Positions 14,678-27,600 of a stretch of 64,000 nt of DNA are shown here, piece after piece. Every line of letters starts with the position of its first letter. Position 1 is the first letter of the stretch. The stretch is from Paralichthys olivaceus. Lineage: Eukaryota > Chordata > Actinopteri > Pleuronectiformes > Paralichthyidae. A program made the translations under genes and the position numbers. Under the pieces are notes generated by a model. The model did not search any database and was not told where the DNA came from. It was given only the letters and a program-made list of their open reading frames with translations. Where the stretch lies: assembly GCF_024713975.1 (NCBI RefSeq), contig NC_091095.1:1862501-1926500 (forward strand), read 5' to 3'.

Positions 14678-14759
14678 TCAGCAGTGGGTGGCCTCGATGG
14701 GCGACAGCGTCAGGATGCTGCGATCGTTAGAGTAGAAGTTCTCCGTGTCGCCCCAAGAC
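14678..14759 (-). CDS. ATP11B: ATP11B exon 30: shared C-terminal end
   Basis: This exon completes an Arg codon begun upstream (two bases in the previous exon plus G), then encodes [19 protein letters not shown] and a short end before TGA at 14680-14678. The NDRSILTLS block matches human ATP11B as I recall it. Only an upstream exon that exits in phase 2 keeps this frame; skipping both candidate exons 29 would give ten residues and a stop. Confidence 0.93.
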
Positions 14760-18600: not shown

Positions 18601-21600
18601 AACACAGACAAGACAGGTTACAGACTATAGTGTAATGGAGACCTGTTGGGTAGAGCCCGACAGATATATCACATAGATGTCCCACAGGAAGTCTTTGGGC
18701 ATGGACACATTTAGAAATGCTGAATAAATAAATGATGAAATAAGTTGTCCTGCTCGGGGACAGACGGACAGAAAAGACAAAGCACAGAGCAAAGGCTCTG
18801 GGAATAGAACAAATCCACTGAGGTTCAGAAGTCTGAGCTTTAGACCTCATTGTATGATTAATATTGTCGTCTGGTCGATATTAGACGTATCGGTCGGGCT
18901 CTACTCTTGGTTGTCTTCAGTCTATTGGCCTCAATGAGATTACTGGGACCCACATTGTCCAAGGCTTTCCTGCCAAACATCCATATCTGCATGCTACATA
19001 GACGGCATGGGCATATAGATGTATTCAGTCACTGGTCTCTATAGTTTTGGTTGCTGATATTCCTCTCATCATACACCACGAGGTTAATATTTCTGTCTGG
19101 CTAATCGAACTGTCCAGACACGGATGGAAATAAGAAACCAACAATGCAGTTCATCTTGATCCAAACATCTTCAGCCTCCTCCTTCAGCTGGATTCCCAAA
19201 GTCCTGCTAAGCCACAAACCCGTACACCAGTTTCTATGCCCATTAGAAACCCAGCTCCCCCACGGCTGCATACCCAAACCAAATATGAAACGGAACAGGC
19301 AAAACTTACAGTTGAGCTGTGGCCACATTATGAGCTACAGCTCAGAACTGGAGTCCAAATTTTTGAAACCACGAGGTGGTGTCGGTTCGTCAGGTTTCAT
19401 AATCATTGTTAGTAGTCGTCGTGGTCCTCCCCACCTGTTGTTGCAGCTGGATGCCGGGCAATGGTTGTCACCGGCCGGGCACTGCCCTGTCATTTGCTCC
19501 AGGAAGCAGACCAGGCGGGAACAGCCGCTCTGCCCATGTTGGTAGCAGCACAGGGACTCCACACAGCTGAGGGTCTGCGCGGGGGCTGATAGAGACTGAA
19601 GGAAGGTGAAGAAGGTTGAGAAAGAAAGGGTGTGAAAGGTTGGAAGCAAAAGAGAAGGAAAGAGGGGGAAGTGAGAGGACAAAGAGAAGAAATGAATACC
19701 AACACAGTCACATTCTGAGAGGATGATGAGGGTGACGGCAGGATGACGTACTGCATGCTGTCACAACAACAATGATGGACAGAGGAGAGATTTCACACAT
19801 GCTACACGAGGGGGTGACATGTTGCAAATACATAAATCATAAAACTAATAAACAAATAAATAAGAAAAAAGAGTTTTGACTTCAGTTAAAAACAAGACCA
19901 TCAAGAAAGTTCAGTTCCTTCAGACTGAGCTTTATCAATGGCTCAGCTCGAACCTGCTTAGTGTTGTTGTGTGACTTCCGAGCTGCTCTAAAGATGGCCT
20001 CTCTCTCTGTTGCAGTTCTTTCTGTCACTTCTATGATGGATCACTCACTCTGCATCCAATCCATAACCCGCAGCACAAACTAACCGTGATCCAAGGCCAG
20101 TCGATCACAGCAATAACAGCCAAGCTCTTTTTTTCTTGACTACCTTTCCATCAAAATGATATTTTATGTCACACTTGATAATTTAATCTTCACACAAATT
20201 GTATAACTTCATGTCCTGGGATAAAGATCATGGATATTCAGCCTGCTTCTATTTTACCTACTGATCATATGGACAGTATGTGTCATGAGAAATGAGACAG
20301 TGTCGTCATCGTCTATCCAGATCTTCTCGTTTTCATGATACGTTAAAACCAAAGCAAAGTATTGTCTACACTAATGTAGGAGTTGGCAAGCAGTGGAAAG
20401 AAATGAGACTGGCAGACAAAGCTGAATGAAGTTGCTGCCAAGAAACCTGAGAGATCAGGTGGCTCTGCTGTCTTGAGTCAGCACCCGAGAGAGAGACAGA
20501 GAGACAGAGAGACAGAGAGAGTGTGAGGGAGAAAATAAAGAGCAGAGAGACGAAGAGAAGACAGAGACAGAGAGTGAGGTTACACTCATGTCGTCTGCAT
20601 CCTGATCAGGACAGAGCAGCATCATTAGAGATTAACCTCAGAGTAAATTTAGTGACCCATCTGGTCCGTGAATCAGCTTCAATTTGTACTTTTTGCAATA
20701 ATCAATTACGGGCATCATCGATTTCTCAAGATCAAAACTTGCAGAGCAGCAGACTTTATAATTCTCTCCACATTCACGTGTGACTGAATGAAAAGTTTTG
20801 ACTCCGTCGGGTTTAAAAACCTCCAGCGTCTTTCATCAAATGGAGAAACACCGAACTCTAAAATGCTTCTTTACGGCGTAGAGGCAGCACATCGGATATT
20901 TTAAACATGAGCCCTGATGTGGCCACAAAATTGTTGTGTTGTGTGGCCGAACGTGTGACGCTTGCTTTGGCTTGTGACGTTGCTGTTTTTACTTTTCTCT
21001 GCAGCAGAAATTGGAGACACTGCTGGCATGAAATCAAACTATTGTTTTCCTGAAGCTGGAAAACACTGACCAAACTGAAAATGGATTGTGCTGGCAGTGT
21101 CAGACGTCTGTAAATAATATTGTGAGCGCATTGTTTTGCTCTTAGATCAGAACATACTGTCTTTTACTGCAACACAAGACTCACCAGAAAACACACAAAC
21201 CAACAGAAAGTAGCTGTGACAACAACTTCACCACAACCGTACCCAGATTGAAATGTTTCCCAGACTTGTGTTCATTTGTTGTTGAAGTGTCCTTGGTGTT
21301 TTTATGTTGGTGAGACCACATGGGTGATAAATGTAGGTTTAAGCTGTAATGACCCACTCAAACCAACCGAGCGTCAAGTGGTGAAGTATCAATCAGTCAA
21401 CACCGAGGCAGAGGTCAACAGGGTTCACATTCTGCAGTTTTCATGTTAGATTCAAAGCTGCTCCTCTGTCTGGATTATGGGGGAAGCTCAAGAGAGAAGA
21501 ATCAACTGAATGAGCCACTTCACCACCGCAATGTTTGTGACAAATTGCCAAACCATGACTGACTGATTATAGTTCTCTTTAACAGTGAAGAATTCTGAGA

Positions 21601-24600
21601 AACAGATCCTAGAATTAAAGGTTTTGATATAAACTGAGCAGGGCCTCAGTGAAAGCTGTATAACTGACACCATTTCCCTGGCTGATTTATTTACTGTATG
21701 TTCAGCCACAAGCATTTTAATTAACTAAAGGCTGATTAATGCTCAATATTCGATGCATATACAGAAACGGACGGAGCCTTTTGTCTTGTGATGAAAAAAG
21801 ATAAAATAAAAGAGGAACGTAAAGAAAATAAAAGATATGAATCATATAAAATAATGGTTTTATGAGATATCAAATACTCACAAGTCATCGAATGAATAAA
21901 ACATCATTCCGACGTCAATATGAAATGTGTTGGGAATAGATGGTTGAACAAAAGCACGGTGAAGACAATGAAGTCAGCATGCCAACAGCATTCTCCCTCT
22001 TTAACCCCTGAACCTGTGTCTGAGCAGTAACCAAGAGGAATGGATGTGCAGCAGGTTACAGGGAAAGGATCATGGCTGGTTAGGGAGGAAGGGGTCACAA
22101 GGATTAGATTATCCATGCAAGGGTGGATGGATGGGGTTGACCATGACTGTCATTCATACAGGGAATTGAAATAAAGGGGCAGTTTAGGGGCATTCAGCCA
22201 TGGGGGCGGGGTGCAGAGGGTTGGAGGCCTTAATGCTGGGGTAGGGACATCATGAGGGGGGGGGGGGGCAGTGAAATACACGGATGGTACTACCTAGGGG
22301 AGCAGGGGTCTGGGCCGGGGGTAGCAGGGGGAGGATAAGCAGCTAGCAGGTGCCAATTGTCCTCCCCTGGGCTCCGCTGGACTTTAACAGGGTCATATTC
22401 TGGGCCGACTGAACCCTCACCCTCTTCCATCTGAGGGACACAAGATGCTTACAGTGAGCCCCGCTGGCTCGTTACACATCTCATCCATCAGGTGCACTGC
22501 TGTAAAACCAGCCTGCTGACGAACCAATCACGCTGCAAAAAATATCCACTTCGGTCTTAATAGCACGAGCACTTTTTAAAATGCTAATGCAGGTGTGTCT
22601 GGGATGTATTCTTGATTTCAAACATCCTGATTTTGAGTTCCATGTTCATTTGATAGTGGTTTGAAATCATCTCTCAGACATCACTGAAGACTTAACGATC
22701 AAAGTTAAGGTGGATATGCTTCTTCAGTGCTGCTTGTTTAGCAATGAGCAGATCAGCCAGTTAGTGAGCCAGTGATCAGTCTGTCAGTAGACACGTTTAC
22801 ATGGACACCCTTATTTTGATATTAACTCCATTAAGAAGTCAGTCTGACTAAGACAGTGCCACGTACACAGCATTTTCTAAACTCATATTCAAAATAACGT
22901 CTCACTGAGAATAAGGTCAACAGTTAGTATTGGTGTCCATTAAACGTCAGTCCAGTAAGCTCAGAACAAGCTGTAAAACCAATGAGCAGAAAGAAGCTGC
23001 AGACATTCCAAATGTCTCAAGGGACGAAGTTCCTTCTAGCGCAGATAAGAGCAAATCTATTAGCATCCAAACCAATCAAGCGGCTGCTGAATCTATCAGA
23101 GCTACAAAGTAGATAAACAACAGGAAACCCAGGAGAGTATTCTGGGGGATTAATTCCCCATCAAATTAGAAAGGACAGAATTGACAGAATTGAATAATTT
23201 GCATTATAGAGCAACATTAAAACACCATTTAAAGCCAGTGAGGGCCTCGTGTAAACTTCCACTGATTCAACAAACAAATTACTTCTGTTCCTGGTTACTA
23301 TGATCTGCAAGTCTACAGTTTGTTTCTGCTCAAACATTCTATGGGATGGAACCTGCATGGATATAATTGATAGGTTGAAATATATACTTAGTTGCCGGTT
23401 TATTAGGTTCAACTAATTCTGTAATAAATCCTACCTTCACAACGTTGAAACTGTTTCAGGAATGTGTTTTTTTAACTTCACCCTCCTTCTATGTATGAAT
23501 GTGATGTTATATGTATTAAATGGGATATTTCCCAATGATTATCTTGTGGAGCTGATCAACGTAAAAACAAACCATAGAGACAAGCTAAGTCTTATATGGA
23601 TCAGAAAACTATTCACAATGTTATTGACATCATGAAGGAATCAATCTGCAGGAATCTCTGCATCCTACAGGATAAAGACACGAAGTTTACATATATAGAC
23701 ACATAATTTATGATCATATGGTTAGAATGCATCACCACTATGAAGTCAGAAAATGATTGTTGTGCATTAACTTTTGCAACCGATTAGATTAAATACAATC
23801 TGCAGCTTAAATGACCATAAAGTTAAATGTCAGGTTGAAGTTAAGATTTACAAGATGTGTTAGACTGCATCTGTTTTTGCAAGATGTATAAACTGGCAAC
23901 TAAGTGAAACGTAAACCACTGTAAACAATAGAAACAACTATTGTGCAAGCATATTCCCAGCAAGAGCTTCAGAATCAGAAAAAGTGTTTTGTTTTATAAC
24001 CATCAGGGTAAAGATATACATGCAGCAAAAAACATATTTGACATAAACCTAAAATACATTACACAACGTATTGCACACGGTTCATTCACATGATCTTGGA
24101 CAATTCAAGAGGCTGTCCAAGATCAAGGGAATATCGTAGTCGCCTGCCGTCATCACAGACAGCTCACACTATCGGTACCATTTCACCTGCAGGCTGTTTA
24201 TTGTGACATCTACTACGACGGCACAAGATCTTCAAGGCATCATTCCAAAATAGCTGCAATAATAACACAGCTGTCTGTCACGTTTCGACTGGGACAGCCT
24301 CATGCTGCTGTGCCCTGACACGTCACGTCTGTCATGCAGCTGCCGTGTTGCTATCAGTCTTCTTCTGTGAGTCTGTTGAAACCATGCAGGGGAACAACTC
24401 TGAGCTAAGAAGGGTTTTCTAAAGTGGGGAAACCAGTCTGAGGGTGTACGGCTGGCAAACGTCAAGAAGATGGACCATACTGTGGAAACGGGGGGGGGGC
24501 TGCACCATGCGACTGATGTCCCTCTAAACATGCCAGACTCAGACTGTGGTTGTATGAGTCCACGATGGTCAGGAGGTGGGTCTGACCAGGTGCTCGGATT

Positions 24601-27600
24601 TGGGACGAATGCAGATGCAGGACGTCAGAGTCAGAACAGAACCAAAACCTCAAATACAGTCCCTGCATGGCAAAACTGTATAATACTGAATAATGAGTTC
24701 CAGGGGAGCAATCAAGATGAAGCAAGGGAGGATTCCCAGGCAATTTCACAGTCTTTCATTCACTCATCCATTCATCTGTTTGTTCATGCAGAGGAGGGAG
24801 TGATTGCATTTCCATGCTGAAGCAGGCAGGAGGTCTGATGGTGGATTAAAGTGCAACACATGCAGCGGCTGAAAGTCACATTCTTCTGCATCGTCTCTAA
24901 CCCCAAAAGACCCAAACATGTTTAATCCCCAATCACGGAGAATGCTGCACTCACATGCACTCACAGACACTAAACAATAAGGTGGAGTTCCAACACTAAC
25001 GGCAGAAAGTGCACTGCCAGTGTCAGAAACAGGAGTAAGTACGACTAAATCAAGTCCAGACCTGGGAGGAAGAACATTCAGTTGTGTATTAATGATGGTG
25101 AAGAGGAGTGCTTGTTCCATAAAGCAATGTTTCTACATTTTAGGGGTTGCATGTGTTACTGGAATTGAGACTTTAAATATATATAAACCTGTGCATCAAT
25201 AATCTACAATTTAAAACAAATCTTTAGATTTGTTTATATATATATATATATATCTCAAACATAATGTGGTTTGTGTAGAATATTCCTATTTAATTACAGC
25301 AAGTGTTAACATATCACTGCATGGTAGAAATTAAAACAACAAATAACTGCATCAAATTACAGATCTTTACACATTTTAAAGTATTACAGTTATTCATTGT
25401 AATAATTCAAGTTATTCTTTCAGGGGCAAAAACAAAAAAGTTTTCTATCTCCTGCTTTGAAAATGAAAGAATCTGAAACTTTTATTCATTACAGATGATG
25501 CAAATGTCTTAACTAAGTGTTTTTCATGATTTATTGATTAATTAAGAAATGCAGCTCTTTTTTTTTTCTTCAAACTAATAGAAGAGAAACTGAATTGTTC
25601 TAGTGTTGGTGGCTCACTATTCACAAACATATTGTGATTCATGCCAGAATCTAAGACTATAGAAGAATTGCTTATGAATGAAGCACTCTGTGTCTTATTA
25701 TTTTATTTGAATTGATTTTTAGAAAGATATTAAGCCCAGGACTGGATCAGTCTCATCTCCTCTACCTAATTTTGCCCAGCTGGCTCTTGGTTCTGGAAAG
25801 AGGCTGCAGAGCGATGAAGTCATCTCCTATTGCCACACGGTTGGAATACATCTACACCAGGAGTGTACACAGGAGGAAGAACACACATAGACACGCAGAG
25901 AGGTTAGATATCAAGCCCTCACACACACACAGTTCATTCTGACCCCACTCTTAGAATCACACACACACACACGCAAAGACAAAACTGGACAAAGTTTAGA
26001 GCAAAAACAACAAACACCACATTTGCTTTCTGCAAAAACAAGAGGAGTTTTGAAAAGAGGAAAGTATAAGCTAAGACACGAATAGTCTCCAGCTGGATAA
26101 ATCAGTTCAATGACAGCGTGGCTCGGCTGAAAGGTGACCGTGCAAACTGTGTCCGTGCAGAGTTGAGTCATGTGGCGTGCGTGAGGAACCATGCTGTTTG
26201 CGTAAAGAAGTGGATTACTCGTGACAACAGAAGCTGAGAAAATAATGAGCTGTTTCTCCGATATGAGTCAGAACATTTTCTTTCTCTGTCGAGAAGTCGA
26301 GCTACCTTGACATTTTACTTTGTTTTCTCCCTCCAGGCTTTTATTGTCTCACATGAAATATTAGTTCAATTATTGTGATGCAAGTAGGAATAAGTATTCG
26401 ATCTAACACTGTGCACAGGAGAAGACAGTTTCAATAATGGACTGTGTTTCGGACATTCTTGACATTTACTTCTGGGCCTGCAGATCTAACAGGAAACCCA
26501 GACCTACAGAAACATCACGTGTTCCATGAATTCACCTCCATAAAAAGGATTTAATCTCGGCTACAGTCACAATCGCCCTAAATGCAGATATACGTAGGTC
26601 TGTGAGTGGATCCGACTCACTTATTCACGATGTGAATAAAAGAGGGACTTCTTGGAGTCTGGCCAGAAGGGTGAAAGACAAATCTTATAAAATCTCAGCC
26701 AATTTGAAAGAAGATCCTTTTCCTTTTTTTTTTTTTTTAAACCAAAGAAAGAAAAATCCTTTTAAGAAGAATTACTGGCTCTGAGTGCTTCTCTTTACTT
26801 TCCCCCATTAATCCCTGTGTTACCTGACTCTTCTGCGTGCTGGTGGGCTTCAGGTGTCTGTAAAACACCTTCTTCACCACGTCAGGGAAGAGGCAAGTGA
26901 TGACAATGATGATGATGGCGAACCAGGCGGAACCGCTGGAGAGCAGCTGCACGAATACAAAGTACATGTCCTGGGTGTGGAGGAACGGCCTGGAGGGGGC
27001 GGGGGGAGAGAAAGAGTGGTTACCTTGGGCAGCCGAGGGGAGGGGCTACACGTTGGTCTGTCTGGAAGTGACGATAACATTCTGGCTAAAGTTAGCATCA
27101 GGTCTGATTAAGGTGGTTTCAATCCACAGTAAGGGTGGGCAGACAGGACCAGCTCAGTGACATCACATATTAAGGACCACAAATATCATTTATGGTCCAT
27201 TTCTATCAGGACGGCTCCCGCTAGTCTGTGAGCTGACTCTTAATAATTACTTAATAATCATGATTCTAACAAAGCTTCAGTGACAGGAGTTCAAAATCAT
27301 TTTGAAGCAGAAGAAGCTGTTATTACCAGATGATGCCTCCGTAGAAGAGAGAGAAGATGAAGTAGAAGGCAATCGAACCCCAGGTCACAAAATGGTTCAT
27401 CCACGTCCAGAAATGAGTCTCTATAGCAAGCTGTCATCAAACACACACACACACACACAGACAGAGAGCGACGTAAGACACCGAGAAACTGTATATCTGC
27501 CTCAGAGCTGTAAAAGAGACCTTGACCTCAACCTGGGACAACTCATGTTCTCCCATTAATGGTCACCGACATCACAACATACTGTAATTCATACTGGCAC

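What the first reader, a model, noticed from the sequence alone, without database searches (positions are those of the whole stretch)
22294..22430. Hidden phase-matched alternative exon in the ATP11B C-terminal tail
Seen in sequence: a 137-nt stop-free segment with a strong acceptor (CCCTCAG) and donor (CCTAG/GTAGTA) lies between exons 28 and 29. It has exactly the phases of exon 29 (0 in, 2 out). Using either one keeps exon 30 in frame; using both or neither gives a premature stop. Inference: this is a mutually exclusive exon pair swapping an 8-cysteine tail for an acidic, proline-rich one. Established: the paralogues ATP11A and ATP11C have alternatively spliced C termini that affect where the flippase resides.
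Basis: partly seen in the sequence, partly recalled or inferred. Interest (0 to 1): 0.78.

Follow-up and report, generated by a model that had tools for sequence, protein, structure and literature searches.

The report
Ancient alternative tail of flippase ATP11B
The hidden exon is real, but it is most likely one half of an old two-exon alternative ending of the lipid flippase ATP11B, read in a different frame from the one first proposed, and the same ending is predicted in animals from sturgeon to platypus.

Summary
The 137-nt segment (A) lies at 22430-22294, minus strand, in intron 28 of a fish ATP11B gene, with the phases stated. Sequence alone would not prove it: its donor is weak, and segments as good turn up about once per 7 kb elsewhere in the window. 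Homologues in public gene models make it a real, conserved exon.

The mutually-exclusive-exon reading is not supported: 0 of 123 relatives join A, or the other new exon, directly to exon 30. In 12 models from 10 species (sturgeon, paddlefish, tarpon, herring, lungfish, platypus and others) exon 28 is followed by B, then A. That shifts A into another frame, giving ...[35 protein letters not shown]. The window encodes this tail intact, stop at 22345-22343. It replaces an acidic, cysteine-rich tail (net charge -4) with a basic one (+8) carrying a conserved R-x-x-S site.

Best reading: an ancient alternative C-terminus that retargets or regulates the flippase, as tails do in ATP11C. Transcripts and function remain untested.

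The parts
26824..26989 (-). ATP11B exon 28, last constitutive exon before the variable tail; ends in phase 0 (...PTSTQKSQ)
   Evidence: assembled CDS in frame; same boundary in relatives
25766..25851 (-). alternative exon B, 86 nt, phase 0 to 2, [28 protein letters not shown]; weak donor ATTAG|GTAGAG with an in-frame TAG just past it
   Evidence: 28 of 29 residues identical to Scophthalmus P0007; found in 38 of the proteins held by the pattern, 39 by that; splice scores
22294..22430 (-). alternative exon A (the finding), 137 nt, phase 0 to 2; the better conserved frame is the one entered from exon B
22343..22345 (-). stop codon of the B-A reading ([33 protein letters not shown]), 49 nt before the end of exon A
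19435..19595 (-). exon 29, cysteine-rich (8 Cys), 161 nt from the upstream acceptor (140 nt from the acceptor at 19574, the length used), phase 0 to 2
14678..14759 (-). exon 30 coding end, [30 protein letters not shown]

Best explanation
Exon A is the second half of a two-exon alternative C-terminal module, B-A, of ATP11B. When exons B (25851-25766) and A are both included after exon 28, B's length (3n+2) shifts the frame so that A is read as [29 protein letters not shown] followed by a stop. Whatever follows A is then untranslated. This swaps an 80-residue acidic, cysteine-rich tail ending [16 protein letters not shown] for a 57-residue basic tail with a basic-aromatic patch (KIRWKRVRV) and a conserved basophilic-kinase-type serine (R-x-x-S). 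Shown: the exons, frames, stop, and conservation of the predicted tail from sturgeon and lungfish to platypus. Inferred: that the transcript is made in this fish, that the protein is stable, and that the tail changes where the flippase sits or how it is regulated, as the tail does in ATP11C. The kinase-site reading of R-x-x-S is recalled knowledge.
For: The B-A tail occurs in 12 models from 10 species: Polyodon, Acipenser (two), Clupea, Denticeps, Megalops, Salminus, Esox (two entries), Brienomyrus, Protopterus, Ornithorhynchus. The window's 57-residue reading matches them at 38/56 (platypus) to 49/56 (Megalops). Invariant in the 13 aligned are, among others, FIALQPL, RWK, QSA, MTLLK and the last cysteine. 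Exon B varies at few positions in the 38 proteins that match its pattern. Sequence after the B-A stop drifts, with a length change in Poecilia that seems to alter the exit phase. The tail charge goes from -4 to +8 in the window, and R-x-x-S is kept in 12 of 12 sequences tested (11 proteins and the window; the duplicate Esox entry P0118 was not tested).
Against: No RNA reads could be examined; the relatives are automatic gene models and some look stitched (P0005, P0007, P0023, P0088, P0116). If A is spliced on to 29 and 30, the B-A stop lies 49 nt before one junction and 210 nt (49 + 161) before the next, which predicts nonsense-mediated decay. No percomorph model among the cluster representatives shows B-A; percomorphs show B->29, B alone or A->29. 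The five single-pair tests of frame conservation are not significant (p 0.09-0.39), and sites and species are not independent. The back-translation compatibility test works in both directions, so it shows common origin of the exon, not which frame is selected.
Confidence: 0.72

Rival explanations
1. Mutually exclusive exons: A or 29 is chosen and either joins exon 30 in frame, swapping a cysteine-rich for an acidic proline-rich segment.
For: Phases fit exactly in this window. The frame carries a [DE]xxxL[LI] sorting-like string, kept in 6 of 7 other sequences of that frame (missing in Coregonus), and Y-D-P-V, kept in the two Poecilia sequences only.
Against: 0 of 123 relatives show A->30 or B->30. 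Poecilia models imply a different exit phase for A. The frame is the less conserved one. The two leucines follow from the N-C-stop of the B-entered frame in all 13824 possible codings of G-R-T-I-G-N-C-stop; an acidic residue four before them follows in 4608. Exons A and 29 show no protein-level similarity (tblastx, no hit at E 1). Caveat: the database is clustered at 90%, so such isoforms could hide inside clusters.
Confidence: 0.08
2. B and A are poison exons: their inclusion mainly destroys the mRNA through nonsense-mediated decay and tunes ATP11B level.
For: B-A, B-29 and A-29 all give early stops: the B-A stop 49 nt before the end of A, the B-29 and A-29 stops 55 nt before the last junction. 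Donors are weak, as in many regulated exons (recalled general knowledge).
Against: A stop at 55 nt is at the usual 50-55 nt limit (recalled) and may escape decay. The peptide of the B-entered frame is conserved through to its last residue in lungfish and platypus, which a poison exon does not need.
Confidence: 0.15
3. B, with read-through into the intron, is an alternative last exon: ...GKIR-stop followed by an intronic poly(A) site; A is then only sometimes added.
For: 7 models end at or just after GKIR (6 exactly: P0103, P0107-P0110, P0113; P0112 ends KIRADS). AATAAA at 25707, about 55 nt after the TAG.
Against: 9 AATAAA or ATTAAA motifs lie in intron 28 upstream of A and 8 more between A and 14400, so one nearby is weak evidence. 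Twelve models continue into A and 15 into 29.
Confidence: 0.05

Closest known systems
ATP11C C-terminal tail and its variant ATP11C-b
   Same: Paralogous flippase whose C-terminal tail carries localisation signals: PKC-dependent SVRPLL endocytosis (PMC5680300, passages, one from its abstract) and an LLxY ezrin-binding motif (PMC11460456, passages and reference titles; Takayama 2019 and Inoue 2021 themselves not read).
   Different: The B-A tail of the window has neither SVRPLL nor LLxY. Homology of the exons with ATP11C was not tested.
ATP11A isoforms with different 3' ends
   Same: Human ATP11A has several long isoforms and its C-terminus is reported as critical for endocytosis or polarised localisation (PMC9035003, passages, citing Okamoto 2020, not read).
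   Different: No B or A homologue shown; my one attempt used a human ATP11A tail recalled from memory and gave no hit at B or A.
Automatic RefSeq/Ensembl-type ATP11B (ATPase IF) isoform models of fishes and platypus
   Same: They contain B and A in the same positions.
   Different: Computed models without description; nothing on this tail showed in the listings of my 10 library searches.

Membership tests
ATP11B flippase gene | P4-ATPase coding sequence in frame, closest to ATPase IF | tested here: met
   exons 2-30 in frame; named relatives in the database are called ATPase IF or plain phospholipid-transporting ATPase
Alternatively spliced ATP11 C-terminal tail | alternative exon(s) after exon 28 that change the C-terminus and are conserved | tested here: met
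   gene models only, no reads:
Alternatively spliced ATP11 C-terminal tail | change of localisation by tail choice | not testable with these tools
   needs cell experiments
Mutually exclusive exons | phase-equivalent exons | tested here: met
   A 137, B 86, exon 29 140 or 161 nt, all 3n+2 in the window
Mutually exclusive exons | never both; each joins the same next exon | tested here: not met
   0 of 123 models join A or B to 30; 12 include B with A, 15 B with shifted 29, 6 A with shifted 29; models, not reads
Mutually exclusive exons | sequence similarity of the exons (tandem duplication) | tested here: inconclusive
   tblastx: none for B/A or A/29, a 9-residue match at E 0.009 for B/29; blastn: none for B/A, a 15-nt match at E 0.03 for A/29, only 7-8-nt matches for B/29
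Poison exon (AS-NMD) | inclusion brings a stop more than 50-55 nt before a later junction | tested here: inconclusive
   B-A stop is 49 nt from the end of A and 210 nt from the 29-30 junction if 29 follows; B-29 and A-29 stops are 55 nt from the last junction

The most novel reading that the evidence does not exclude
Exons B, A and 29 all have length 3n+2 here, so the number of them included sets the reading frame of what follows. This gives one locus at least four C-terminal tails (29-30, B-A, B-29, A-29), with exons A and 29 each read in two frames: a splicing-coded frame switch, inherited from the common ancestor of ray-finned fishes and tetrapods, that inverts the charge of the tail and so reassigns the flippase between membranes or between regulated states.
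Probability: 0.25. Interest if true: 0.65.

Novelty: new member of a known kind. Interest (0 to 1): 0.45.

Why it matters
ATP11B is a phosphatidylserine flippase mainly of endolysosomal membranes (PMC12424579, PMC12222028, passages). A second tail predicted from sturgeon and lungfish to platypus, opposite in charge and carrying a kinase-type site, would be a direct handle on how this flippase is sorted or controlled, and would extend to ATP11B what is known for ATP11A and ATP11C. Work with the canonical tail alone would miss it.

Tried and rejected
Rejected: chance open segment (homologues exist); mutually exclusive exons (0 of 123).

AlphaFold models of the B-A isoform (P0095, 27 sequences, mean pLDDT 36.7) and the canonical isoform (P0006, 20 sequences, 34.6) were too poor to use. 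ATP11A and ATP11C in the same genome could not be examined: the genome search answered once. The back-translation test (Salmo and Electrophorus 0 of 2000 null draws, Triplophysa 0.009) first looked like proof of selection on one frame; its reverse control also exceeded its null in 11 of 12 comparisons at 0.05, so I dropped that claim. One search failed on a script error and was redone. In one search the automatic labels missed P0097 and P0098 (B->29 by eye) and left P0002-P0004 without the 29 label; the counts given here include these corrections.

Full report
The observation. The stretch 22430-22294 on the minus strand is as described: 137 nt, open in phase 0, between CCCTCAG and GTAGTA. I assembled exons 2 to 30 of the gene from the window; the reading frame is continuous for 1144 residues (exon 1 not located), and the gene is ATP11B by its named relatives. 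Exon 28 ends in phase 0 and exon 30 begins in phase 2, so A (137 nt) or exon 29 alone keeps exon 30 in frame, while both or neither give an early stop. The donor is weak rather than strong: 2.5 bits, below 27 of 28 other donors of the gene. Outside intron 28, segments as good as A occur about once per 7.2 kb (6 in about 38 kb: 0 in 19.5 kb of the other introns, 6 in 18.4 kb upstream). Sequence alone would therefore not have settled the matter.

Relatives settle that the exon is real. A protein search with the alternative tail returned 84 proteins. One search added two salmonids and Triplophysa. In none of these eight is A joined to exon 30. In the three Poecilia models, Electrophorus and the two salmonids it is followed by a frame-shifted exon 29 (read by eye); Coregonus and Triplophysa look like stitched models.

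A second exon. Two of the proteins (Scophthalmus P0007, Coryphaenoides P0023) had a different insert, [26 protein letters not shown]. The window encodes it at 25851-25766 with 28 of 29 residues identical to Scophthalmus, between an acceptor GGTGTAG and a donor ATTAG|GTAGAG. It is 86 nt, phase 0 to 2, like A and exon 29, and its donor (1.6 bits) is below all 28 others scored, its acceptor (2.4) below 24 of 29. It is present in 39 of the 123 relatives (38 by the stricter pattern) and varies at few positions.

What B and A make together. In 12 models from 10 species B is followed by A. B's length moves A into another frame, giving [28 protein letters not shown] or a close variant, and a stop. The species include sturgeon, paddlefish, lungfish and platypus, which suggests that the module was present in the common ancestor of ray-finned fishes and tetrapods. 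The window's own DNA gives [61 protein letters not shown], identical at 38 of 56 aligned positions to platypus and 49 of 56 to Megalops.

Which frame matters. Over the shared part of A, the B-entered frame varies at 10 of 29 sites across 8 species from sturgeon to platypus, compared with the window. The sites are not independent and the five single-pair tests are not significant (p 0.09-0.39), so this is moderate evidence. A compatibility test between frames exceeded its null in both directions: it shows that the two sets of proteins come from the same ancestral exon, and no more.

Classification of the 123 proteins returned by the three searches (corrected by eye): 76 canonical 28-29-30; 15 B then shifted 29; 12 B then A; 7 ending at or just after B; 6 A then shifted 29; 7 stitched or other (P0005, P0007, P0023, P0042, P0088, P0115, P0116); 0 with A or B joined to 30. 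The searches were aimed at B and A and the database is clustered at 90% identity, so these are not frequencies, and an isoform hidden inside a cluster cannot be excluded.

Mechanism. The canonical tail of the window has net charge -4 and 9 cysteines; the B-A tail has +8. In 12 of 12 B-A tails tested (11 proteins and the window) R-x-x-S is kept, and R-x-R-x-x-S in 10 of 12, not in lungfish and platypus. For ATP11C, phosphorylation of Ser1116 in the tail creates a di-leucine signal that drives endocytosis (PMC5680300, passages), and an LLxY motif binds ezrin (PMC11460456, passages). I infer that ATP11B's tail choice likewise alters sorting or regulation. The motif in the B-A tail differs and its function is untested.

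Limits. No RNA data were reachable. Gene models named isoform X are computed; that they usually rest on RNA reads is recalled knowledge, not a result here. Structure prediction failed, and paralogues in the same genome could not be searched (answered for exon A; 15 other calls did not). Ten literature searches in an open-access library showed no description of this ATP11B tail in their listings, nor did the passages seen of seven papers. Subscription papers were not covered.

Noticed in passing
29387-29364, minus strand: A 24-nt in-frame microexon (ILRANRQL) flanked by AG and GTAAGA lies between exons 25 and 26. Of 123 relatives 47 carry an 8-residue insert there, 62 lack it and 14 did not match the pattern (its count of 15 includes the 45-residue query piece P0001).
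   Followed up: partly
19595 and 19574, minus strand: Exon 29 has two in-frame acceptors 21 nt apart (14.9 and 3.1 bits). Many fish models use the upstream one (SLSAPAQ...), and some relatives differ here.
   Followed up: partly
14681 and 22346, minus strand: Both the canonical tail (most relatives) and the B-A tail (13 of 13 aligned) end in a cysteine as the very last residue; no explanation.
   Followed up: no
whole window: The window lies in a 588-Mb, 25-contig genome. The canonical tail looked closest by eye to Pleuronectes platessa (P0012), so the fish is probably a flatfish.
   Followed up: no
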